Positions 22,866-46,751 of a stretch of 64,000 nt of DNA are shown one piece after another. The position numbers and the translations under genes were made by a program. Origin of the DNA: Candidatus Promineifilum breve (GTDB lineage Bacteria; Chloroflexota; Anaerolineae; Promineifilales; Promineifilaceae); contig NZ_LN890656.1 of assembly GCF_900066015.1 (NCBI RefSeq), positions 930,001 to 994,000 of the forward strand, given 5' to 3'. Positions within the stretch are counted from its first letter, which is position 1; each line of letters starts with the position of its first letter. Under the pieces are notes generated by a model, which was not told the DNA's origin, did not search any database, and saw only the letters and a program-made list of their open reading frames with translations.

Positions 22866-23317
22866 GAGGTACACAGAGATCACGGAGGGCAGACACAGAG
22901 GCCACGGAGAGAAAGACCCAGGCTCCGTTCCCTCTGTGACCCTCTGTGACTCTCTGTGAACTCTGTGTCACTTCTTAAGAGGTACACAGAGATCACGGAG
23001 GGCAGACACAGAGGCCACGGAGAGAAAGACCCAGGCTCCGTTCCCTCTGTGACCCTCTGTGACTCTCTGTGAACTCTGTGTCACTTCTTAAGAGGTACAC
23101 AGAGATCACGGAGGGCAGACACAGAGGCCACGGAGAGAAAGACCCAGGCTCCGTTCCCTCTGTGACCCTCTGTGACTCTCTGTGAACTCTGTGTCACTTC
23201 TTAAGAGGTACACAGAGATCACGGAGGGCAGACACAGAGGCCACGGAGAGAAAGACCCATGCTCCATTCCCTCTGTGACCCTCTGTGACTCTCTGTGAAC
23301 TCTGTGTCACTTCTAAA
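22866..23317. repeat. Four tandem 113-bp palindromic units (CACAGAG family)
   Basis: Units start at 22866, 22979, 23092 and 23205. Each is itself an inverted repeat (ACACAGAGATCACGGAGGG ... CTCTGTGAACTCTGTGTC) ending TTCTTAAGAG. Units 1-3 are nearly identical; unit 4 has two substitutions. Not CRISPR: no variable spacers. Confidence 0.92.
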
Positions 23318-33180: not shown

Positions 33181-35700
33181 ATGGGCAACGAACTAACGGC
33201 AAAGGGTGCGAACGCGCTAGAGAGGGAAGGCGCGCTGGTGCAACGCTTCCTGACAATGACAGGCGATGAAGAGACTCGGGTAAACGAGCAGGCGCCAGTC
33301 AAATCAGACGACAACTTCTTCACCCGACTCGTTGCTGCGGCCGAAGCCACGCTCGATAATTGGTCGCTGTCGATTCTCAATGCCCGTTACGGCCTTTTCA
33401 ACCGGCGGTCGATGACAGTTGACGAGATCGCCATCTACTCCGGGCTGACAGCCGAAATGGTTCGTGCTCACATTGACAGCGCGCTGGAACGGCTCAACGA
33501 GCAAGGGCAGCGGGAAATCTTGGAGGGCCGTGTGGATGAACCATGCGCCCGCCTGGTGCTATACGTGAGGGCGGCTGTGCGTCCGGAGGAGGAGGGTGCG
33601 ACAGCACGTCTGATGACTTTAACCTACAAGGACCTCTCGCACCTGGAGCCACTGCTCGACTTGCCCGACCTGCTGGCCTTGTTCACCAAAGAACCGGACG
33701 AGCAACATCTCCGATCGATTATGACGCGGCTGCAAGTGTTAGAAGCTCTTCAATCCGGTGTGACGATTACCTTTCAGTCTGAATATGGCCCCGCTGAGGA
33801 ACAGGAGTTCTCAGGCCTGTTGGCCGGTGTAGAATGGCCGCCCGCACCAGCGCGCTTGAGCTTGAGCGAGATTCGACAGTTTGAACCAGGCCTGCCGGAT
33901 GAAGAAACTGTAGTCGTCCAGTTGTTTTCAAGTACCAAGAGCAACCACCGATGTCAGTTCACGAACAGCCAGGTCTTCAATTTGTTGTGCCACCTGGAGT
34001 ATAACGAGCAGGTTGTCTATTACACGGAACGGCCCCTGCGCGTTCCCAATCCTTTTACCGACGAGGGTGAGCCAAACTTTGTCGAGCCATCGCATTTGAT
34101 GGCCTTGCAAGACGGTCGGGTCGTGCTCATCGACATGACGCCTCCGGGCGAGGTCGTTTTTGGTCTCCATTCATCTCGCCGCCTGGCCCTGCGTCTCTAC
34201 TGTATGCAACATGGGTATGGACTCCTGGTCACTGACGGTCGCGACACGGCACTTAGTCATAGCCAATGGCTCTTGCCAAGCGATCGCGGCTTCTTGGTTA
34301 CCCTGAGCATGACAACCGGTCTATTGACCGGCGAACCGGCTGTTAACCTCGGCGATTTGAACCTTACCCACCGTGAGATGTGTGGGCTTGTTGCCCGTGA
34401 GAACCTGTTTTGGCTGCCGGGCACGCATGCCGTTTCCACCCAACCCCCAGGCGCGAATAGAATGGGGGAAGTGGATGATGAGGACGAAGCAGCAAGCGAG
34501 ATGGAACCGGATGACACATTCACTGACAACAAGGTGGCCGATGGCGCTGATAATGTCAGAGGAAGTAGCCAATTAATGGAACTGTTGGTTAATGCCGTAG
34601 GTTTGACGCTGGATGAGCGGGAGGGAGCCATTTTCATGGCACGCTTTGGCTTGGAAGACGGACAGGCGCGAACCCTGAGCGCAGTCGGCGATCAGTTCGG
34701 CATCACTCGCGAACGGGCACGACAGATCATCGAGAAGGGCTTTCAACGCCTAACCCGCGCGGCCAAGAGCGCCCGGCGGCGCGCCCGTTATGACGAGCCT
34801 TGCGCCCGGTTGGCGGACTACATTCGCTCGGCCGTGAACCCCGACGCTGACGATGACGCCGAACGGTTGCTGGCGTTGATGCGTACGGAGCTTCCTCAGC
34901 TACGAACCCTATCCGTGCGTGATGCAGCCATGCTGCCTGCTCGATTCCTGGGAGACAAAGAGACAGCAGCGGATTATGCCAAGCGTGTCCGCGAGTTGTT
35001 GGAAGCCGAACAGGAGGTTAGGCGTATAGAGAAGGAAGTCGCGCGCTCCGATACCAGGCTCGCCGCCCTGTTAAGGGACGTCCTCTGGCCGCCGGAGATA
35101 AGCGTTATCGCGCCGGGTGATTTCGGCACTCTCGTCGCCGCCCGTTCAGTGTCGCCCATCATGGCTAGTGAGACCGGCGCGTTCGTCAGCGGCAAATTGG
35201 ACCGTTTGGTCGAATATGAATCAGCCCTTGAACACGACTTTCTGCAACTGCTTGAAGGAACCGGCAACGTTACTTTCTATCAGGAGCAGCCATTCCGTGT
35301 TCCGTATGAGGATGACGGACAAGTTCACCATACCTACCCCGATGTGTTCTTCGTGTTGGGTGACGGGCGTGGCGTCGTGGCAGAGGTCGCACCGAACTTT
35401 GAAATGGCCCAGAAAGAGAATTGGGTTAAGTGGCATGGCCTGCGCATGTTCTGCCGCGAGCGCGGTTACGGTTTGCTTATCACTGATGGGCGTCGTACCT
35501 TTCAGAGCGTGAGCCGTCACGAGGTTCGCTTGGACATCCGCCACTCACTGCTGGCAGCGCTGGACGATGGTCCCATGAGCTGGCCGGAATACCAGGCTTG
35601 GCGCGATACGTCGGGAATCACGACCGGCGAGTTCTATGCCATTGTGATTCGCGAGCGGCTGGATTGGAGGCTGCGGCCGTACCGGCTGGCGAGGGGCTGA
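33181..35700 (+). CDS. Tandem (sigma-region-4-like HTH + TnsA-like nuclease fold) protein
   Basis: 839 residues, internally duplicated. Unit 2 has a sigma-70 region-4-like HTH (~465-527: TLSAVGDQFGITRERARQII), a helical segment (DEPCARLADYIRSAV), and a TnsA-N-like PD-(D/E)xK fold (~670-775: ESALEHDFLQLLEG, FYQEQPFRVPY, TYPDVFFVLGDGRGVVAEVA, RERGYGLLITDGR). Unit 1 (~45-370) repeats the order in diverged form (LFNRRSMTVDEIAIYSGLT, DEPCARLVLYVRAAV, VVYYTERPLRVPNPF, MQHGYGLLVTDGR). The TnsA-type EVK lysine is EVA in unit 2, and unit 1 lacks the acidic core, so cutting activity is doubtful. No TnsB/TnsC nearby. Base composition is less GC-rich than neighbours, suggesting transfer. Function unknown. 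Confidence 0.75.
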   Translation: MGNELTAKGANALEREGALVQRFLTMTGDEETRVNEQAPVKSDDNFFTRLVAAAEATLDNWSLSILNARYGLFNRRSMTVDEIAIYSGLTAEMVRAHIDSALERLNEQGQREILEGRVDEPCARLVLYVRAAVRPEEEGATARLMTLTYKDLSHLEPLLDLPDLLALFTKEPDEQHLRSIMTRLQVLEALQSGVTITFQSEYGPAEEQEFSGLLAGVEWPPAPARLSLSEIRQFEPGLPDEETVVVQLFSSTKSNHRCQFTNSQVFNLLCHLEYNEQVVYYTERPLRVPNPFTDEGEPNFVEPSHLMALQDGRVVLIDMTPPGEVVFGLHSSRRLALRLYCMQHGYGLLVTDGRDTALSHSQWLLPSDRGFLVTLSMTTGLLTGEPAVNLGDLNLTHREMCGLVARENLFWLPGTHAVSTQPPGANRMGEVDDEDEAASEMEPDDTFTDNKVADGADNVRGSSQLMELLVNAVGLTLDEREGAIFMARFGLEDGQARTLSAVGDQFGITRERARQIIEKGFQRLTRAAKSARRRARYDEPCARLADYIRSAVNPDADDDAERLLALMRTELPQLRTLSVRDAAMLPARFLGDKETAADYAKRVRELLEAEQEVRRIEKEVARSDTRLAALLRDVLWPPEISVIAPGDFGTLVAARSVSPIMASETGAFVSGKLDRLVEYESALEHDFLQLLEGTGNVTFYQEQPFRVPYEDDGQVHHTYPDVFFVLGDGRGVVAEVAPNFEMAQKENWVKWHGLRMFCRERGYGLLITDGRRTFQSVSRHEVRLDIRHSLLAALDDGPMSWPEYQAWRDTSGITTGEFYAIVIRERLDWRLRPYRLARG

Positions 35701-35860: not shown

Positions 35861-36022
35861 CATGATCAACGTCACCCCAAACCTATGACAAATCTTAATA
35901 TCCAGCGCAAGGAAAGAGGAGTACAGTAAGCTATAGAAGCGGTCATCACGCCCCATTGTCCCGGATGGATCGGCACGGCAAAAGGAGTCGGGCGGGGCGG
36001 GCCGGTAGTTAGGAGCCTTTCG
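35861..36022. repeat. Duplicated 5' region of the beta-helix genes, copy 1
   Basis: 162 bases almost identical to 38958-39119, from CATGATCAACGTCACC to TAGTTAGGAGCCTTTCG before each start codon. It probably contains promoter and ribosome site (TTAGGAG). Confidence 0.85.
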
Positions 36023-38734
36023 ATGAGTACCGAACTGAATACTGGTGTTGGAGTCAACAGCGCGGCCGAGCGTGGTTGGTTGGCCGGCCTGCTGTTGCGT
36101 CGCGGCGATACACTGTTGCCGCGACTGGCCTTTTATTATAGGAAGATGGCCGCCCTGCCGCGCCCCTGGCGGCGGCAATTGCGGCGCAAACTGGCCGTCA
36201 CCGTCAGCGGGGCGGCGCTGCTGCTGGCCCTGGCCGGGCCGGTCTTGCCCCCCGCGTTGGCCGATGCCGACGCCCCCGCGGCGACGATCACCGTCGTCAA
36301 CGGCGAAGTCGCCATCACCAACAACAACAAGTGCTCCCTGCTGGAAGCCATCATCAATGCCCGCGCCACGACCAACGGGCAAATGAAAGCCGACTGCACC
36401 AGCGGCAACATCAACGGGCCGGACACGGTGTCGCTGCCCAACGGCGGCGATTTCGTGCTGACCGCATCGCACAACTCGCAATTCGGGCCGACCGGGCTGC
36501 CGGTCATCACCGATGACATGACCATCGAGGGGCACGGCTCGGCCATCCGCCGCGACGAGACTTACACCACGCCGGAGTTTCGCATCATGGCCGTCGATCC
36601 GGGCGTCAACCTGACCATCCGCGATACGACCATCAGTGGCGGGAGTAGCAGTTATCCCTACCAGGGCGGCGGCATCCTGAACAAGGGACATCTGCTTATC
36701 GAGGGCGGCACAATTCGCGACAATTATGGTTACTGGGGTGGCGGGATCGAAAACGAGGGTAACCTTGTGGTGATCGACAGCCTGATCACGTATAACACAT
36801 CGCGTTTTGGCGGTGGGGTCGACAACGAGGGTGAACTTGTCGTGAGCGACAGCCAGTTCACGCATAACAGTGGGGAGTACGGTGGCGGTGGCGTTTACAG
36901 CCACGCCGCGACAACCGCGACCATCACCGGCAGCCTGATCGCCGAAAACTTGGCCCACTACCACAATGGCGGCGGTATCCTGAGCAGTGGTATTCTGAGC
37001 ATCGAGAACAGCACGGTTGCGAACAATTCCGCCTACGCGGGCGGCGGCATTGATGCAACGCAAGCCACCATCACCGGCAGCCAGATCATTGAGAATAATG
37101 CCTGTAATCTCTCCCACCAGGTTTATTGTTTGGATGGGGGTGGCGGCATGCGCGTTGAGAATCTGACCCTGGTCAACAGCACGGTCGCCGACAACACATC
37201 TTATGGCGGCCTGGAATTCGCCGGGTGGGGCGGCGGCCCAGGTGGCGGTATCGTCATTAACGGCACCTCCACCATTACCGGCTCGACGATTAGCGGCAAC
37301 CGGGCTATTAGCGGCTATGGTGACATTTCTGATCCTGGCCTGCCGCCGGGGATTGGGGGTGGCATCCTCATCTATGATGACGTCACTATCGTCAATAGCA
37401 CGATCAGTGGCAACGAGGCGAACTATGGCGGTGGGATTCTCGTCGCCGAAGGTGACGTGACATTGATCCATACCACCCTGACCGGCAACGTTGCCAAGTA
37501 TGAGAGTTACTATAACGAAGAGTACTATGCTACGTACTCTGCCTCCGGGCTTGGCGGCGGCTTGTTTGTTGGCGGAACATTTGATTATGACGCCTCACCA
37601 ACTGTGTCGCTGAGCGGGTCGATCTTTTCCGGGAACACCGCCGACACGGCGGGGCGCGAAATCATGGGCAGTGCATCGGCCATCACCGGCAACGCCTTCA
37701 ACGTCATCGGCCGCAATGGTAACGCCGGAACGTCCGGCTTCACCCCCGGCGCGACCGACATCGTGCCCTCGGCCGGCCTCAACGCCATCCTCAGCCCCCT
37801 GGCCGACAACGGCGGGCCGACCATGACCCACGCATTGCCACAGGGCAGCCCGGCCCTCGACCGCGCGCCCAATGCCTCGTGTACGGCCGCGCCGGTCAAC
37901 GGCGTCGATCAGCGCGGCGAACCGCGCAACCAGAACGGCGCGGGCAACGCGAGCAACAACGAGTGCGACGCGGGCAGCTTTGAGCGGCAGGCGGGCGGCG
38001 GCGGCGGCGCGGCCTTCCTCGTCTCCCCGTCGGGCAGCGGCACGGTCGGCGGGGTCGCCTTTGCCCCCAGCGACATCCTGAAGTACGACCCGGCGGCCGG
38101 CTGGTCGATGTACTTCGACGGCTCCGACGTGGGCATCACCAAGAACCTGAGCGGCTTCGAACTGCTGGGCAACGGCGACATCCTCATGTCGTTCCAGGCC
38201 AGGCAGACCATCCCCGGCGTGGGGTCGTTCATGCCCCAGGACATCGCCCGCTTCGACCCGACGACTACCGGCGACAACACGGCCGGCGCCTTCCAATGGG
38301 CGCTGGACGGCTCGACCAAGGGGCTATCGACCAGCGGCGAGAAGATCGACGCGCTCGGCCTGTCGGCCGGGTCGTGGGCGATCAGCACCACCGGCGCGGC
38401 CACTGTCCCCTCCGGCGGCGGCACGCTGAAGGCCCAGGACGAGGATGCCCTGCTCTTTGATCCGGGCAGCGGCGGCTGGTCGGCCTTCTTCGACGGCACG
38501 CCCATCCCCGGCCTGAAGGCCGAGGACGTCAACGCCCTGTGGGTCGACCCGACCAACGGCGACCTGTATATCAGCCTGCTCAACGCGTTCAACCTGAGCG
38601 GGGTCAGCGGCAACGGCCGCGACATCGTGAAACTGACCAACAACGGCGGCGGCAGCTACACCCCGTCACTGTGGTGGAACGGCGCGGCGGCCGGCTTCCC
38701 GGTGAATGTGGATGGGGTCGAGATTCTGCCCTAA
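36023..38734 (+). CDS. Secreted right-handed beta-helix protein, paralogue 1
   Basis: 903 residues. TTAGGAG lies ~8 bases before ATG 36023. A long N-terminal extension (~50 residues, GLLLRRGDTLLPRLAFYYRK) precedes a signal-like helix (LAVTVSGAALLLALAGP). CSLLEAIINAR (near 110) is the usual opening of choice-of-anchor/parallel beta-helix proteins. About 180-570 contain ~20-residue coils with SxIxxNxAxxGGGI patterns (VANNSAYAGGGI, STISGNEANYGGGI). After PALDRAPNASC (~615) comes a C-terminal ~250-residue domain (ILKYDPAAGWSMYFDGSDVG, DALLFDPGSGGWSAFFDG, LYISLLNAFNLSGVSGNG). Likely a surface or secreted adhesin or polysaccharide-binding protein. It is paired with the next gene. Confidence 0.85.
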   Translation: MSTELNTGVGVNSAAERGWLAGLLLRRGDTLLPRLAFYYRKMAALPRPWRRQLRRKLAVTVSGAALLLALAGPVLPPALADADAPAATITVVNGEVAITNNNKCSLLEAIINARATTNGQMKADCTSGNINGPDTVSLPNGGDFVLTASHNSQFGPTGLPVITDDMTIEGHGSAIRRDETYTTPEFRIMAVDPGVNLTIRDTTISGGSSSYPYQGGGILNKGHLLIEGGTIRDNYGYWGGGIENEGNLVVIDSLITYNTSRFGGGVDNEGELVVSDSQFTHNSGEYGGGGVYSHAATTATITGSLIAENLAHYHNGGGILSSGILSIENSTVANNSAYAGGGIDATQATITGSQIIENNACNLSHQVYCLDGGGGMRVENLTLVNSTVADNTSYGGLEFAGWGGGPGGGIVINGTSTITGSTISGNRAISGYGDISDPGLPPGIGGGILIYDDVTIVNSTISGNEANYGGGILVAEGDVTLIHTTLTGNVAKYESYYNEEYYATYSASGLGGGLFVGGTFDYDASPTVSLSGSIFSGNTADTAGREIMGSASAITGNAFNVIGRNGNAGTSGFTPGATDIVPSAGLNAILSPLADNGGPTMTHALPQGSPALDRAPNASCTAAPVNGVDQRGEPRNQNGAGNASNNECDAGSFERQAGGGGGAAFLVSPSGSGTVGGVAFAPSDILKYDPAAGWSMYFDGSDVGITKNLSGFELLGNGDILMSFQARQTIPGVGSFMPQDIARFDPTTTGDNTAGAFQWALDGSTKGLSTSGEKIDALGLSAGSWAISTTGAATVPSGGGTLKAQDEDALLFDPGSGGWSAFFDGTPIPGLKAEDVNALWVDPTNGDLYISLLNAFNLSGVSGNGRDIVKLTNNGGGSYTPSLWWNGAAAGFPVNVDGVEILP

Positions 38735-38915
38735 TCCCAATCGCAATCGTTGTCGCAATCGCTGTCGCAATCGCAATCGAAAAGCGAAGAATCGATAGCG
38801 ATTGCGATAGCGATAGCGATAGGGATCGTGGGGAGGGATCGTTGTCGCAATCGCAATCGTAATCGAAAAGCGAAGAATCGATAGCGATTGCGATTGCGAC
38901 AGCGATTGCGATTGG
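38733..38915. repeat. CAATCG / CGATTG hexamer-word palindromes
   Basis: Two consecutive inverted arrays: CAATCGTTGTCGCAATCGCTG ... GATAGCGATTGCGATAGCG, repeated once. It begins at the stop of paralogue 1. Confidence 0.85.
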
Positions 38916-38957
38916 GCGAGACTTGCTCGGTCAAGGCATGAAAAACCCCAGAGAGAA

Positions 38958-39119
38958 CATGATCAACGTCACCCCAAACCTATGACAAATCTTAATATCC
39001 AGCGCAAGAAAACAGGAGTACAGTAAGCTATAGAAGCGGTCATCACGCCCCATTGTCCCGGATGGATCGGCACGGCAAAAGGAGTCGGGCGGGGCGGGCC
39101 GGTAGTTAGGAGCCTTTCG
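38958..39119. repeat. Duplicated 5' region of the beta-helix genes, copy 2
   Basis: Near-identical to 35861-36022 (offset 3097). Differences noted around 39007-39014 (GAAAACAGG for GGAAAGAGG). Confidence 0.85.
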
Positions 39120-41696
39120 ATGAGTACCGAACTGAATACTGGTGTTGGAGTCAACAGCGCGGCCGAGCGTGGTTGGTTGGCCGGCCTGCTGTTGCGTCGT
39201 GGCGATACACTGTTGCCGCGACTGGCCTTTTATTATAGGAAGATGGCCGCCCTGCCGCGCCCCTGGCGGCGGCAATTGCGGCGCAAACTGGCCGTCACCG
39301 TCAGCGGGGCGGCGCTGCTGCTGGCCCTGGCCGGGCCGGTCTTGCCCCCCGCGTTGGCCGATGCCGACGCCCCCGCGGCGACGATCACCGTCGTCAACGG
39401 CGAGGTCGCCATCACCAACAACAACAAGTGCTCCCTGATGGAAGCCATCATCAACGCCCGCGCCGAAACCAACAATCAAATGAAGGCCGACTGCGCCAGC
39501 GGCAACATCAACGGGCCGGATACGGTGTCGCTGCCCAACGGCGGCGATTTCGTGCTGACCGCGCCCCACAACGAGCAAAATGGCCCCACCGGCTTGCCGG
39601 TCATCACCACCAGCATGACCATCGAGGGGCACGGCGCGACGATTCGCCGCAGCACGGCCACGTACTCCCATTTCCGCATCATGGCCGTCGATCCCGGCGC
39701 CACCCTGACCCTGCGCGACACGACCATCCGCGACGGGTGGGCCTCTCCTGACTACGACGATGGCCCCGGTGGCGGTATTCTGAGCCGTGGCAACCTGGTC
39801 ATCGAGAATTGCACGATTGCCGACAATTACGGCTACTATAAAGGTGGCGGTATTTATGCCGCTGGGCAATTGACCATTACCGGCTCCAGCGTCACGAACA
39901 ATTGGGTTTGGGGTTCTGCTGCGGCCGGCGGCGGGATTTTTGCCAATGGGCAAACCAACATCACGGATAGCACCATTGCCGATAATCGGGCCTCGGCAGA
40001 CGATATCACTGCTCACGGCGGTGGGTTATATATCGGCCCGGATGCTCAGGCGACTATCTCCGGTAGCCTGATCAACCAGAACACAGCCTCTTCGCATTAT
40101 GATACCGCCGGCGCCGGTATTTTTGTCTACGGTCAGGCGACGATTGTTGACAGCACCATCGCCGAAAACATTAATAGTGGTAATGAGGGTGGCGGTACGG
40201 GCGGCGGCGTTTATGTGACCGGGCAGGCGACGATCTCCGGTAGTACCATCCGCGACAACGTTGTCCATGCATTTTACGAGGGTTACTCCTATGATTTGCA
40301 CCCGGCCTACGGCGGCGGTCTCCATAACGATGGCACGACCCTCGTTGTAAACAGCACGATCAGCGGCAATACGGCCGGTTATGGCGGCGGAGTGGTGAAC
40401 ACGCATGAGGGTAATTTGACGATATGGCACACCACCATCACCGATAATCATGCCATTCAGGAAGTTGCCGACTATGATGAAGCCGGTGGCAGCGGTGGTG
40501 GATTATTCTCCGGGCCTCACTATCAGGGTGAGAATTGCTCGGCGACGACACTGCGCGGAGTCATCATTTCCGGTAACACGTCCGACATTTCGGCGAAGCA
40601 GGCGCTTTTCGTGCCGCCGACACCCGGTTACTGTTCGGCGTCGATCACCGTCAACGCCTTTAACGTCTTCGGTCAGGGCGGTAATGCCGGCCTCGTCGGC
40701 TTCACCCCCGGCGCGACCGACATCGTGCCCTCGGCCGGCCTCAACGCCATCCTCAGCCCCCTGGCCGACAACGGCGGGCCGACGATGACCCATGCATTGC
40801 CGCAGGGCAGCCCAGCCCTCGACCGCGCGCCCAATGCCTCGTGTACGGCCGCCCCGGTCAACGGCGTCGATCAGCGCGGCGAACCGCGCAACCAGAACGG
40901 CGCGGGCAATGTGACCAACAACGAGTGCGACGCAGGCAGCTTCGAGCGGCAGGCGGGCGGCGGCGGCGGCGCGGCCTTCCTCGTCTCCCCGTCGGGCAGC
41001 GGCACGGTCGGCGGCGTGGCCTTCGCCCCCAGCGACATCCTGAAGTACGACCCGGCGGCCGGCTGGTCGATGTACTTCGACGGCTCCGACGTGGGCATCA
41101 CCAAGAACCTGAGCGGCTTCGAACTGCTGGGCAACGGCGACATCCTCATGTCGTTCCAGGCCAGGCAGACCATCCCCGGCGTGGGGTCGTTCATGCCCCA
41201 GGACATCGCCCGCTTCGACCCGACGACCACCGGCGACAACACGGCCGGCGCCTTCCAATGGGCGCTGGACGGCTCGACCAAGGGGCTATCGACCAGTGGC
41301 GAGAAGATCGACGCGCTCGGCCTGTCGGACGGGTTGTGGGCGATCAGCACCACCGGCGCGGCCACTGTCCCCTCCGGCGGCGGCACGCTGAAGGCCCAGG
41401 ACGAGGATGCCCTGCTCTTTGATCCGGGCAGCGGCAACTGGTCGGCCTTCTTCGACGGCACGCCCATCCCCGGCCTGAAGGCCGAGGACGTCAACGCCCT
41501 GTGGGTCGACCCGACCAACGGCGACCTGTATATCAGCCTGCTCAACGCGTTCAATCTGAGCGGGGTTAGCGGCAACGGCCGCGACATCGTGAAACTGACC
41601 AACAACGGCGGCGGCAGCTACACCCCGTCACTGTGGTGGAACGGCGCGGCGGCCGGCTTCCCGGTGAATGTGGATGGGCTGGAGATTCTGCCCTAA
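39120..41696 (+). CDS. Secreted right-handed beta-helix protein, paralogue 2
   Basis: 858 residues with the same layout as paralogue 1. The first ~125 residues are nearly identical (CSLMEAIINARAET replaces CSLLEAIINARATT). The central helix coils (~170-520: ITGSSVTNNWVWGSAAAGGG, DSTIADNRASADD, STISGNTAGYGGGVV) are different in sequence and length. The ~310 C-terminal residues from FTPGATDIVPSAGLNAILSP on are again almost identical. This pattern of identical ends and free-changing centre suggests duplication followed by gene conversion at the ends and selection for variety in the exposed helix. Confidence 0.85.
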   Translation: MSTELNTGVGVNSAAERGWLAGLLLRRGDTLLPRLAFYYRKMAALPRPWRRQLRRKLAVTVSGAALLLALAGPVLPPALADADAPAATITVVNGEVAITNNNKCSLMEAIINARAETNNQMKADCASGNINGPDTVSLPNGGDFVLTAPHNEQNGPTGLPVITTSMTIEGHGATIRRSTATYSHFRIMAVDPGATLTLRDTTIRDGWASPDYDDGPGGGILSRGNLVIENCTIADNYGYYKGGGIYAAGQLTITGSSVTNNWVWGSAAAGGGIFANGQTNITDSTIADNRASADDITAHGGGLYIGPDAQATISGSLINQNTASSHYDTAGAGIFVYGQATIVDSTIAENINSGNEGGGTGGGVYVTGQATISGSTIRDNVVHAFYEGYSYDLHPAYGGGLHNDGTTLVVNSTISGNTAGYGGGVVNTHEGNLTIWHTTITDNHAIQEVADYDEAGGSGGGLFSGPHYQGENCSATTLRGVIISGNTSDISAKQALFVPPTPGYCSASITVNAFNVFGQGGNAGLVGFTPGATDIVPSAGLNAILSPLADNGGPTMTHALPQGSPALDRAPNASCTAAPVNGVDQRGEPRNQNGAGNVTNNECDAGSFERQAGGGGGAAFLVSPSGSGTVGGVAFAPSDILKYDPAAGWSMYFDGSDVGITKNLSGFELLGNGDILMSFQARQTIPGVGSFMPQDIARFDPTTTGDNTAGAFQWALDGSTKGLSTSGEKIDALGLSDGLWAISTTGAATVPSGGGTLKAQDEDALLFDPGSGNWSAFFDGTPIPGLKAEDVNALWVDPTNGDLYISLLNAFNLSGVSGNGRDIVKLTNNGGGSYTPSLWWNGAAAGFPVNVDGLEILP

Positions 41697-41790
41697 TCCC
41701 AATCGCAATCGCAATCGCAATCGCTATCGAAAACCGTAAGAACGATAGCGATTGCGATTGCGACAGCGATTGCGAGGGGGATTGCGATTG
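41695..41790. repeat. CAATCG hexamer-word palindrome
   Basis: CCCAATCGCAATCGCAATCG then GATAGCGATTGCGATTGCGAC. Begins at the stop codon of paralogue 2, just as the array at 38733 does for paralogue 1. Confidence 0.85.
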
Positions 41791-41997: not shown

Positions 41998-42105
41998 GTT
42001 TTCGCAATCGCTATCGCTATCGCAATCGCTATCGCAATCGCAATCGCAATCGCAATCGTTCTTCCGTTTTTCGATTACGATTGCGACAGCGATTGCGACA
42101 GCGAT
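41998..42105. repeat. CAATCG / CGATTG hexamer-word palindrome
   Basis: Tandem CGCAATCGCTATCGCTATCGC words facing ATTACGATTGCGACAGCG words. Confidence 0.82.
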
Positions 42106-42155
42106 TGCGAGGGGGAGGGGGAAGGAAGAGCGATTATGAGTAAATCGCCCCCCAC

Positions 42156-42391: not shown

Positions 42392-43645
42392 GTGAGCGAT
42401 CACCAAACAGCGCCGGGCGGCTCGCCGTTCGACGCCTTTAACCTGGACTCGCGTATCCGCGCCGGCATTGTCGATGCCGGATACACGATTCCCACCCCCA
42501 TTCAAGAACAGGCCATCCCGTTCGTGCTCGAAGGGCGCGACGTCTTGGGCCTGGCCATGACCGGCACGGGCAAGACGGCCGCGTTCATGCTGCCCATCCT
42601 GCAACGCCTGACCCGTGGCCCGCTGCGGCGGCCGCGCGTGCTCATCGTCGCCCCCACCCGCGAGCTGGCCGAACAGATCAACGAGACGGCGGCCGTGTTG
42701 GGTCGCCACACCAAGATCCGCAGCGCGGCCATCTACGGCGGCGTGGGCAAGGGGCCGCAGGTCGCGGCCATCAAGCGCGGCACGGAAATCCTGGTCGCCT
42801 GCCCCGGCCGTCTGCTCGACCACATTGGCGCGGGCGACATTGACCTGTCGACCATCGAAGTGCTGGTGCTCGACGAGGCCGACCGGATGCTCGACATGGG
42901 CTTCCTGCCCGACATCAAGCGCATCCTGCGCTACGTGCCCAACCGCGAGCAGACCATGCTGTTCTCGGCCACTATGCCGGCCGACATCCGCGGCCTGGCC
43001 GACGCCATCCTGCGCGACCCGGAAACGGTGCAGGTCGACGTCATCGCCCCGGCCAAGACTGTCTCCCATGCCCTCTACCCGGTGCCGGAGACGCTGAAAT
43101 CGAAGCTGCTCCACGCCATGCTGGAAGAGACGCGCACCAGCCGCGTGCTGGTCTTCACCCGCACCAAGCACCGCGCCAAGCGATTGGCGGCCGACCTGGA
43201 CAAGCGCGGCTATCGCGTGGCCGCCCTGCAGGGTAACATGACCCAGAACCGCCGGCAGGAAGCCATGAACGGCTTCAAGGGCGGCAAGTACGACATCCTC
43301 GTCGCCACCGACATCGCCGCGCGGGGCATCGACGTGAGCGAGATTTCCCACGTGGTCAACTACGACATGCCCGACACCGTGGACGCCTATACCCACCGCA
43401 TCGGCCGCACCGGCCGGGCGGCGGCCACCGGCCAGGCGGTCACCTTCGCCGTGCAGGACGACGAGACCATGGTGCGCGACATCGAGCGCGTGCTGGGCAA
43501 GCCCATCGAGCGCCGCCGCATGGAAGGCTTCGACTACGGCGCCTTCGCCCCCGAAAGCCAGCGCCCCGCGCCGAAGAAGAGCGTCTACCGCTCGCGCAGT
43601 TTTCATGGCGCGGAGCGGGGTGGGCTGCCGGCGCAACGGCGGTAA
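42392..43645 (+). CDS. DEAD-box RNA helicase (RhlE-like)
   Basis: 417 residues from a GTG start with CAAGGAG upstream. Motifs in order: Q motif (FNLDSRIRAGIVDAGYTIPT, PIQEQAIP), I (AMTGTGKT), Ia (PTRELAEQI), Ib (ACPGRLLDH), II (LDEADRMLDMGF), III (FSATMP), IV (RVLVFTRTKH), V (ATDIAARGIDV), VI (HRIGRTGRA). Motif I has Met where most DEAD proteins have Gln (AQTGTGKT). The short basic tail (APKKSVYRSRSFHGAERGG) probably binds RNA. Expected to unwind structured RNA in ribosome assembly or decay. Confidence 0.95.
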   Translation: MSDHQTAPGGSPFDAFNLDSRIRAGIVDAGYTIPTPIQEQAIPFVLEGRDVLGLAMTGTGKTAAFMLPILQRLTRGPLRRPRVLIVAPTRELAEQINETAAVLGRHTKIRSAAIYGGVGKGPQVAAIKRGTEILVACPGRLLDHIGAGDIDLSTIEVLVLDEADRMLDMGFLPDIKRILRYVPNREQTMLFSATMPADIRGLADAILRDPETVQVDVIAPAKTVSHALYPVPETLKSKLLHAMLEETRTSRVLVFTRTKHRAKRLAADLDKRGYRVAALQGNMTQNRRQEAMNGFKGGKYDILVATDIAARGIDVSEISHVVNYDMPDTVDAYTHRIGRTGRAAATGQAVTFAVQDDETMVRDIERVLGKPIERRRMEGFDYGAFAPESQRPAPKKSVYRSRSFHGAERGGLPAQRR

Positions 43646-44727: not shown

Positions 44728-45717
44728 TCAAGTACCCAGAGCAGGCGAAAGGGCAAAAGCCGGGTCAAAGGGGCGGCCGGACTTAAGGACGCCGAAGGCC
44801 AGATGGAGCAGCTTGCGCATGGCGGCGACGACGATGACCATTTTGGGTTTGCCGGCGCGCTGCAGGCGCTGCTGCATGGCCTGGATGACAGGATTGTGGC
44901 GCAGGGCAACCAGCGCGGGCATGTACAACTGCGCGCGCAGGACAGCATTGCCCTTGCGGGAGGTGTGGCCGCGCCCATAGACCGATGTGCCGGATTGGCA
45001 AACGGACGGAGCCAGGCCGGCATGGGCCACCAGTTGCCTGGGGTTGTCGAAGGCGTGGATGTTGGGCAACTCGACCATCAAGCGGACGGCGGTCAACAGA
45101 CCGATGCCGGGGATGGAACGCAGCAGTTGGCAGGTGTGGCGCAGAGCGGGATGGGCCTGCAGATGGGCCTCAATGGCCTTTTGCAACGCCACGATCTGGG
45201 CCTCGAGCACGGCCAGGATGGCTTGCAGGCTGGCCTGAACGATGGGCGGATGAGAACCGGCGGTCAGGCGATTGCGCTCCTGCTGATGCATGTGTTGCAC
45301 GTCGGCCACGCGCCGCACGAGGGCGCACAGCTCCTGCTGTTCGGCTGTGGGCGGCGTCCAGAGGGCAGGGCGCTGGGTGCGGCCAAAATCCAGGATGAGG
45401 GCGGCATCCAGCCGGTCGGTCTTGGCCCGCCGGAGCTTGGACGCACCATAGGCTTTGATGCGCGCCGGATTGACGACCGAAACGGCGTGGCCTTGTTGGC
45501 TCAGGTAGTGGGCCAGGGCCTCACCGTATCGCCCGGTGGCCTCCTGGACCGCCCACACTCGGCCGGCCCCGTTTTTGTCCAGCCAGCGGCTCAGCGCTCG
45601 AAAGTCGGCCGGGTCGTTGTCAAAGCCGCGGCTGTTCTGCCGTGGCCCGACCTGTAACACGGCCTCGAACGTGGCCTTGGCGATGTCGATGCCCAGAAAG
45701 GAATAGGTGTCTGACAT
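44728..45717 (-). CDS. IS110-family DEDD recombinase (copy B)
   Basis: 329 residues from ATG 45717, identical to copy A except Asp for Gly in NDPADFRAL, as far as I compared. All catalytic elements (GIDIAK, QEATGRYGE, KTDRLDAALI, GLAPSVCQSG) are intact. However, the non-coding end upstream is interrupted at 45895 by an IS5-type element, within the segment that matches the target. The protein could still act with the RNA of copy A. Confidence 0.94.
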   Translation of the reverse strand: MSDTYSFLGIDIAKATFEAVLQVGPRQNSRGFDNDPADFRALSRWLDKNGAGRVWAVQEATGRYGEALAHYLSQQGHAVSVVNPARIKAYGASKLRRAKTDRLDAALILDFGRTQRPALWTPPTAEQQELCALVRRVADVQHMHQQERNRLTAGSHPPIVQASLQAILAVLEAQIVALQKAIEAHLQAHPALRHTCQLLRSIPGIGLLTAVRLMVELPNIHAFDNPRQLVAHAGLAPSVCQSGTSVYGRGHTSRKGNAVLRAQLYMPALVALRHNPVIQAMQQRLQRAGKPKMVIVVAAMRKLLHLAFGVLKSGRPFDPAFALSPALGT

Positions 45718-45894
45718 GGTTGACGCTCCTGTTGGTTTGCTCGGATTGGCTTGACAGTCCGGCCCGGCCCTTCTGGTGAACACCCTTGTTCATTCAGGCT
45801 CTTTCTGTGGTAGAATGGCCTACGATACCGTTCGTTCTGGCGAAGGGCTTGCGGGTAGGGGACCTCATCTACGTTTCAGGTGTAGCTACCCCTA

Positions 45895-46751
45895 GAGCCT
45901 GTTATGAACTTTTGTAAGGCTGGGATATGCTGGGCGAATGGCACGGAAAGCATATCCCAGTGATGTCAGCGATGAAGAGTGGGCTTTTACCGTGGGGTAT
46001 CTGACATTGATGACCGAAGACGCGCCGCAACGCGAGTACGCCCTGCGGGAAGTCTTCAATGGGCTGCGTTGGCTCATCCGGGCCGGCGCGCCGTGGCGCA
46101 TGATGCCCAACGACCTGCCGCCGTGGGCCGTGGTCTACCAGCAAACGCAGCGCTGGTTGAAGGCCGGGGTATTCGAGAGCATGGCCCATGACCTGCGGGC
46201 TTTGCTGCGACTGGCCGATGGCCGGAAGAGCCAGCCGACGGCGGCGATTATGGATAGTCGGACGTTGCAATCGACGCCGGAGAGTGGCGCACGCGCCGGC
46301 TATGATGGGGCCAAACGGCGCAAGGGCAGCAAGGTTCACATGGCGGTGGACACGCTCGGACACCTGTTGACCTTGCACGTCACCCCGGCCAACCAACAAG
46401 ACCGCGACCAGGTCGGTCAACTGGCACAGCAGATTCAGGCTATCACCGAGGAGTCCGTTGAGCTTGTCTTTGTCGACCAGGGTTACACCGGTGACGAGCC
46501 GGCTGAGGTGGCCCTGGCCCACGGTATTCGCCTGGAGGTCGTTAAGCTGCCGGAAGCCAAGAAAGGCTTCGTCCTGCTGCCGCGCCGCTGGGTGGTCGAA
46601 CGCAGTTTCGGCTGGGCGGCTCGCTTCCGTCGTCTGGCCCGAGACTACGAACGACTGCCTGATACGCTGGCTGGTCTGCATTACCTGGCCTTTGTTATCC
46701 TGATGCTTCATCGCGTCGTTACTCTGGTGTCCTATAGTTCATAACAGGCTC
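45895..46751 (+). mobile_element. IS5-family (IS427-like) insertion sequence, 857 bp
   Basis: Terminal inverted repeats GAGCCTGTTATGAAC (45895-45909) and GTTCATAACAGGCTC (46737-46751). Inserted in CTAG with TA duplicated (45893-45894, 46752-46753). The same sequence in IS110 copy A is uninterrupted (CCCCTAGGGGCGAGG at 25583-25597), which fixes the ends. Confidence 0.93.
45938..46744 (+). CDS. IS5-family DDE transposase
   Basis: 268 residues in a single frame; many IS427-group elements use two frames with a frameshift. N-terminal DUF4096-like part: YPSDVSDEEWAF, LREVFNGLRWLIRAGAPWRM. DDE: Asp in AAIMDSRTLQS, Asp in VFVDQGYTGDE, Glu in RWVVERSFGWAARFRRLARD, with GSKVHMAVDTLGHLL between. The stop codon lies just inside the right inverted repeat. 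Probably active and recently inserted. Confidence 0.93.
   Translation: MARKAYPSDVSDEEWAFTVGYLTLMTEDAPQREYALREVFNGLRWLIRAGAPWRMMPNDLPPWAVVYQQTQRWLKAGVFESMAHDLRALLRLADGRKSQPTAAIMDSRTLQSTPESGARAGYDGAKRRKGSKVHMAVDTLGHLLTLHVTPANQQDRDQVGQLAQQIQAITEESVELVFVDQGYTGDEPAEVALAHGIRLEVVKLPEAKKGFVLLPRRWVVERSFGWAARFRRLARDYERLPDTLAGLHYLAFVILMLHRVVTLVSYSS

What the first reader, a model, noticed from the sequence alone, without database searches (positions are those of the whole stretch)
35861..41696. Paralogous beta-helix proteins with near-identical ends and freely variable centre
The 162-base upstream region, ~125 N-terminal codons and ~310 C-terminal codons are almost identical at DNA level, while the central coils differ in sequence and length. 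Both genes end directly in the same hexamer repeat. This resembles a cassette system in which the exposed helix is exchanged between conserved ends.
Basis: partly seen in the sequence, partly recalled or inferred. Interest (0 to 1): 0.62.

Follow-up and report, generated by a model that had tools for sequence, protein, structure and literature searches.

The report
Surface-protein pair with recombined ends
Two neighbouring bacterial genes for secreted coil-shaped proteins have almost identical ends but old, very different middles, most likely because DNA recombination keeps copying the ends while the middles stay distinct; similar behaviour is known for adhesins in other bacteria.

Summary
Genes A (36023-38734) and B (39120-41696) match at 160 of 162 upstream bases, 364 of 375 bases of the first 125 codons and 907 of 930 bases of the last 310 codons; the centres are about 55% identical. 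Silent sites show the same contrast: dS about 0.01 and 0.05 at the outer ends, saturated in the centre. So the segments have different ages; relaxed protein constraint alone cannot explain it. Two cross-species pairs of the same family keep centre and ends in step.

The pattern recurs: a second pair 77 kb apart in the same genome, and, at the 5' end only, a tandem pair in another genus. No third copy carries A/B-type ends, no centre is shared between loci, and no silent archive was seen. Best reading: ectopic gene conversion of the conserved ends of secreted beta-helix proteins (choice-of-anchor-Q cap, propeller-like tail); replacement of one centre is the main rival. Working analogues are H. 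pylori babA/babB and homA/homB and H. influenzae HMW1/HMW2. Strains could not be compared.

The parts
35861..36022 (+). leader of A, shared with B
   Evidence: 160 of 162 bases identical to 38958-39119
36023..38734 (+). gene A, 903 aa secreted beta-helix protein
   Evidence: ORF; choice_anch_Q match; model
36023..36472 (+). A codons 1-150, 5' shared segment (0.99-1.00 to codon 90, 0.90-0.93 to 150)
36473..37756 (+). A codons 151-578, variable centre with graded left edge (beta-helix coils)
37757..38731 (+). A codons 579-903, 3' shared segment (952 of 975 bases)
37784..37990 (+). A choice-of-anchor-Q domain, residues 588-656
38015..38731 (+). A C-terminal propeller-like domain, residues 665-903
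38733..38914 (.). hexamer arrays after A (genome-wide element)
38958..39119 (+). leader of B
39120..41696 (+). gene B, 858 aa secreted beta-helix protein
39120..39569 (+). B codons 1-150, 5' shared segment
39570..40718 (+). B codons 151-533, variable centre with graded left edge
40719..41693 (+). B codons 534-858, 3' shared segment
40746..40952 (+). B choice-of-anchor-Q domain, residues 543-611
41695..41790 (.). hexamer array after B (genome-wide element)

Best explanation
A and B are paralogous secreted beta-helix proteins: helical leader and signal segment, CSL-type N-terminal region, a right-handed beta-helix centre, a choice-of-anchor-Q cap and a propeller-like C-terminal domain. Shown: the outer segments of A and B share a much more recent common ancestor than their centres. 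Inferred: ectopic homologous recombination (gene conversion) between the paralogues copied the two ends, plus the leader, from one gene to the other; the diverged coils offer too little identity to be converted, so they stay distinct. The result is uniform export, capping and anchoring ends around different exposed centres. No dedicated exchange machinery is needed. A binding or adhesin role of the centre is inferred from architecture only.
For: Controls: cross-species pairs L069-L200 and L072-L105 have centre dS 0.74 and 0.84 against 0.49-0.60 in N, cap and tail, so centres are not hypervariable by nature. Second pair L063/L064, 77 kb apart: codons 25-115 at 93-94% nt, centre 36-62%, cap and tail 86-100%, plus a shared 3' flank but unshared upstream DNA. 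The L183 pair in another genus shares only the 5' end (94-98%, then about 50%), which is end sharing without a matching 3' event. C-terminal tree: A+B 100/100, L063+L064 100/100, L074+L075 100/99: the tails of A and B pair within the genome. No in-genome donor for a centre: the 15 longest runs shared between centres are all between genomes.
Against: A tandem duplication followed by one replacement of a centre predicts the same A/B pattern with fewer events, and the junctions near codons 150 and 580 are fairly sharp. Positional orthologues L074/L075 share a neighbour and the 3' end but not the centre, which looks like replacement of the centre or of the 5' part. L068-L207 has an over-diverged centre (dS 2.77 against 0.45-0.68), so centres may evolve fast in some lineages. 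Direction of transfer is not shown.
Confidence: 0.55

Rival explanations
1. Centre replacement: the gene was duplicated in tandem recently (leader to hexamer array), then the centre of one copy was replaced by a diverged centre through recombination in the conserved ends, from another locus, strain or species. This is the reader's cassette idea in evolutionary form, without dedicated machinery.
For: Fewest events for A/B; fairly sharp steps near codons 150 and 580. L074/L075: contiguous 79.7% alignment over neighbour gene and 3' end, centre only 0.57. B's centre is nearest to L075's centre in three of four trees and by pairwise identity (0.565-0.569 against at most 0.477).
Against: No donor centre in the own genome. 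The B-L075 link is model dependent (A+B rejected at p 0.005, not, p 0.138, nor, p 0.30 and 0.098), and one alignment joins L074 with L075. One-sided sharing in L183 and unshared upstream DNA in L063/L064 fit end copying better.
Confidence: 0.32
2. No recombination: recent duplicates whose centres diversified very fast under selection or a targeted mutation process.
For: Centres are the least conserved part across the whole family (median 0.50 nt identity over 210 pairs); L068-L207 centre is over-diverged.
Against: Silent sites in the A-B centre are saturated while those at the outer ends are at 0.01-0.05; three of four cross-species control pairs keep centre and ends in step.
Confidence: 0.06
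3. Assembly artefact: A and B are alleles of one gene from two strains, placed in tandem by the assembler.
For: The source assembly could not be checked; near-identical ends with different middles can mislead assemblers (general knowledge).
Against: Long contigs (3 contigs, 5.03 Mb); a dispersed second pair at two different loci with different neighbours shows the same pattern.
Confidence: 0.04
4. Dedicated cassette system with silent copies or a specific recombinase that exchanges the centre.
For: Only the shape: conserved ends, variable centre.
Against: No third set of ends, no silent centre copies seen, no centre shared between loci, hexamer arrays not specific.
Confidence: 0.03

Closest known systems
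Helicobacter pylori homA/homB and babA/babB outer-membrane paralogues (PMC2795765 and PMC4552749, passages read)
   Same: Paralogues with conserved 5' and 3' segments and a polymorphic middle; 3' segment under concerted evolution attributed to gene conversion (PMC2795765); gene conversion placed in the 5' and 3' regions of bab genes (PMC4552749).
   Different: Unrelated protein family and organism; here the middles are saturated at silent sites, and no strain or phenotype data exist.
Haemophilus influenzae HMW1A/HMW2A adhesins (PMC8262952, passages read)
   Same: Two paralogues whose binding domain, predicted to be a beta-solenoid, is the most variable part (36% identity); the paper cites gene conversion swapping binding domains between loci.
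   Different: HMW proteins use an outer-membrane translocator and repeat-based phase variation; neither was shown here. Adhesion is established there, not here.
NCBIfam choice_anch_Q (NF041518) proteins
   Same: A and B score 55 and 57 bits over a cut-off of 25; matches in 50 of 51 genomes of the bacterial family.
   Different: The model covers only the cap and says nothing about recombination.
Rhombotarget A (PDB 9cdu/9cdv)
   Same: Best Foldseek hit of the A model (E 1.6e-5); sub-threshold TIGR04212 match of B (E 0.02).
   Different: A and B end in a propeller-like domain, with no GlyGly-CTERM tail by inspection; TM-score to the query is only 0.21.

Membership tests
NCBIfam NF041518 choice-of-anchor Q | score above curated cut-off | tested here: met
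   55.3 and 57 bits against 25
Gene-converting paralogous surface proteins (bab/hom/HMW type) | paralogues with conserved ends and divergent middle | tested here: met
   second pair
Gene-converting paralogous surface proteins (bab/hom/HMW type) | ends of paralogues closer to each other within a genome than to relatives | tested here: met
   C-terminal tree A+B 100/100 and L063+L064 100/100; N tree 97/94 and 100/98
Gene-converting paralogous surface proteins (bab/hom/HMW type) | middle domains swapped between loci among strains | not testable with these tools
   one genome per species is held; the species-level hint (B centre nearest L075) is model dependent
Gene-converting paralogous surface proteins (bab/hom/HMW type) | adhesin function | not testable with these tools
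   no functional data
HMW / two-partner secretion adhesins | translocator gene next to the adhesin gene | not tested
   neighbouring ORFs were listed but not searched for translocator families
Silent-cassette antigenic variation (vls/pilS type, recalled) | archive of silent centre copies highly similar to the expressed centre | tested here: not met
   no other place with A/B-type ends; no close centre-only copy among 63 matches of A in the genome; longest run shared by A and B centres 14 bases
CSLREA N-terminal domain (name recalled) | match to an NCBIfam model of that domain | tested here: inconclusive
   no such model listed at E up to 0.1, though a CSL.EAI motif is present
Hemopexin-fold four-bladed propeller (C-terminal domain) | structural match standing above unrelated folds | tested here: inconclusive
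   top 16 VIA rows are hemopexin-fold, Z 9.1-11.7 over 158-179 of 247 residues; Foldseek's E-value ranking puts kelch domains first; no PDB sequence match
Rhombotarget A | C-terminal GlyGly-CTERM tail | tested here: not met
   the proteins end in VDGVEILP / VDGLEILP

The most novel reading that the evidence does not exclude
A genus-wide diversification system in filamentous Chloroflexota: beta-helix centres travel between loci and species as exchangeable units, with the conserved caps as homology arms, so that each lineage shows a set of different surface coils on a common anchor.
Probability: 0.1. Interest if true: 0.65.

Novelty: new member of a known kind. Interest (0 to 1): 0.36.

Why it matters
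If true, it extends to a floc-dwelling environmental lineage, and to a widespread uncharacterised beta-helix family, a mode of evolution that the papers seen here describe for host-adapted pathogens. It marks the variable centre as the part likely to meet the outside world (other cells, polymers or phages) and gives a simple criterion, silent-site steps at cap boundaries, for finding further cases. It also warns that orthology assigned from the ends of such genes can be wrong for their centres.

Tried and rejected
Third copy with the same ends in the own genome: none. Close relatives in named genomes: one distant locus; in viral contigs: none; in plasmids: no near DNA match and only distant protein matches in 6 records. 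Survey of 60 loci from ten other genomes of the family for within-genome repeats: most hits lie inside one gene, and of five loci examined by ORF only L183 was a tandem pair with a shared end. The list was cut by the tool and I fetched only part of it; most of those genomes are fragmented (up to 1290 contigs), so near-identical copies may be collapsed or broken there and absence is weak. The hexamer repeat as part of a cassette: rejected, 21 places genome-wide. L064 as positional orthologue of L074/L075: suspected from the shared neighbour gene, withdrawn, because L064 lies on the other side of that gene and the position itself is empty in this genome. B's centre as proven orthologue of L075's centre: not kept as proven, because support depends on model and alignment. 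Pfam gave no family for A and only a sub-threshold DUF4957 for B. PDB sequence searches gave nothing. Literature: choice-of-anchor Q, 0 papers; Promineifilum with adhesin, 0 papers; Chloroflexi / beta-helix / adhesin / paralogs and choice-of-anchor / beta-helix / gene conversion listed no paper on this case by title and abstract.

Rows dropped or missing: L076 (contig ends at A residue 585) is absent from the N, core and cap trees; L075 lacks its N-terminal part and its contig starts with an adapter-like peptide, so the first 30 residues of its ORF were cut in the core comparisons; L202 was left out; genes without both N and cap segments were left out of the 210 pair comparisons of 21 genes.

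Full report
What is there. The window is G000:C2:930001-994000 of a 5.03 Mb genome in 3 contigs. Genes A (36023-38734, 903 aa) and B (39120-41696, 858 aa) lie in tandem between an 839-aa gene (33181-35700) and a DEAD-box helicase gene (42392-43645; named by eye, not searched). Along the codon alignment, identity is 0.99-1.00 to codon 90, 0.90-0.93 to about 150, near 0.7 to about 210, near 0.5 in the centre, and 0.94-1.00 from codon 579 of A. Counting which of A and B matches a third gene places steps near codons 150 and 580.

What the proteins are. Both carry an NCBIfam choice-of-anchor-Q domain (55 and 57 bits, cut-off 25); Pfam has no passing family. A model of A (pLDDT 77) shows helices at 15-70, then beta strands and coils from about residue 134; its best solved match is rhombotarget A (E 1.6e-5, TM-score to the query 0.21). 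The C-terminal 247 residues fold with pLDDT 93; the best structural alignments are hemopexin-fold four-bladed propellers (Z up to 11.7 over 159 residues), although Foldseek's own ranking puts kelch domains first. The own-genome search with A gives 63 matches, 27 of which cover only this tail (query start 640 or later), so the tail is a shared module. Secretion and a binding role of the centre are inferences from this architecture.

Age of the segments. Stronger selection on the protein ends would not lower silent divergence this much. Controls are cross-species pairs of the same family: L069-L200 and L072-L105 have centre dS 0.74 and 0.84 against 0.49-0.60 in N, cap and tail; L066-L107 is also in step. 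L068-L207 is not in step (centre 2.77, ends 0.45-0.68), a result against treating all centres as slow. Across 210 pairs of 21 genes, centre identity runs from 0.40 to 0.67 with median 0.50; A-B (0.56) lies near the family background although its ends are the closest of all.

Recurrence. In the same genome, L063 (about C2:630.4-632.9 kb) and L064 (about C2:707.4-709.9 kb) show the same profile: 0.93-0.94 over codons 25-115, decay to 0.54 near codon 205, centre 0.36-0.62, then 0.86-1.00 to the stop. Blastn gives 90.5% over 1176 bases, reaching about 119 bases past the gene, while upstream DNA and the first 20 or so codons are not shared. In G036, of another genus, tandem genes in L183 share leader and first 90 or so codons at 94-98% and fall to about 0.5 at once; their 3' ends are not shared. 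L074 (G005) and L075 (G007) are positional orthologues by a contiguous 2037-base alignment at 79.7% that spans a neighbour gene and the 3' end; their cap and tail are 0.84-0.86 identical but their centres only 0.57.

Trees. N, cap and tail trees join A with B (97/94, 95/93, 100/100) and L063 with L064 (100/98, 97/91, 100/100). In the centre, LG+G4 with 17 rows joins B with L075 (100/98) and rejects A+B (p 0.005) and L074+L075 (p 0.008). This weakens under other settings: mixture model with 16 rows, B+L075 93/96, A+B p 0.138, L074+L075 p 0.067; 8 rows, A+B p 0.30 and 0.098, and one alignment prefers L074+L075 (76/85). Pairwise identity favours B-L075 in three alignments (0.565-0.569 against at most 0.477), but rate differences could cause that. 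I therefore treat movement of centres between loci as suggested, not shown. L063 and L064 do pair in the centre too, weakly (80/91), on long branches.

Mechanism. Ectopic homologous recombination is the step best supported. Whether ends were copied onto old paralogues or a centre was replaced in a new duplicate cannot be settled without strains. I favour end copying (0.55) because the sharing can be one-sided, occurs between dispersed genes with unshared upstream DNA, and no centre donor is present in the genome (median longest shared run 13.5 bases over 74 same-genome pairs; the 15 longest runs are all between genomes). Against it stand the L074/L075 comparison and the simpler event count for a tandem pair. 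Dedicated cassette machinery has no support: no third set of ends, no silent copies seen, and hexamer arrays at 21 places.

Place among known things. The H. pylori homA/homB paper describes conserved segments 1 and 3, a polymorphic segment 2 and concerted evolution of segment 3 (PMC2795765, passages). The bab paper places gene conversion in 5' and 3' regions (PMC4552749, passages). The HMW paper reports a binding domain at 36% identity between HMW1 and HMW2 and cites gene conversion swapping binding domains between loci (PMC8262952, passages). The present case works like these but is an unrelated protein family, so I file it as a new member of a known kind, not as a bab, hom or HMW protein.

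Organism. Names are withheld. The gene after L063 encodes a RuBisCO large subunit followed by a phosphoribulokinase-like ORF (named by eye). Together with the form I' rubisco of Candidatus Promineofilum breve (PMC10135865, passages) this suggests, but does not prove, a Promineifilum-like Chloroflexota, a filament of activated-sludge flocs (PMC6753630, passages).

Noticed in passing
G000 contig C2 (1.004 of 5.034 Mb): 11 of 12 fetched own-genome genes with both the N-terminal and cap segments lie on C2, which is 20% of the genome (binomial p 2e-7). C2 may be a second replicon rich in surface proteins.
   Followed up: partly
L065:1116-3521, L078, L079, L080, L082: Genes of another architecture share the C-terminal propeller-like module at 84-91% DNA identity, in several pairs higher than the rest of the gene at about 80-83%: possible further homogenisation of the tail.
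   Followed up: partly
window 38733-38914, 41695-41790, 42002-42110: ATCGCA/CGATTG hexamer arrays arranged as inverted repeats, part of a set at 21 places genome-wide; might be a terminator or a repeat element.
   Followed up: partly
window 44728-45783 and L063:12630-13001: IS110-like transposase gene (named by eye) with a 100% identical stretch near the L063 locus, and a further transposase-like ORF at 45938-46744. No link to the shared ends was tested.
   Followed up: no
L183:2115-5830 (G036): Tandem beta-helix genes sharing leader and first 90 or so codons, then about 50%.
   Followed up: yes
L064:6386-9001 against L074 and L075: Two neighbour genes are adjacent in the own genome with no beta-helix gene between them, where G005 carries one, and G007 carries one beside the first neighbour: presence/absence at one locus.
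   Followed up: partly
L075:5300-5504: Contig end translates to an adapter-like peptide run, a sequencing artefact (recognised from memory).
   Followed up: yes
L076 (G001:C627), contig end at A residue 585: The contig stops inside the gene just where the conserved 3' identity starts, next to the same helicase gene; an assembly break at a repeated end is possible.
   Followed up: partly
window 22866-23314: Four copies of a 113-base tandem repeat at 99% match, rich in CTCTGTGA-like words.
   Followed up: no
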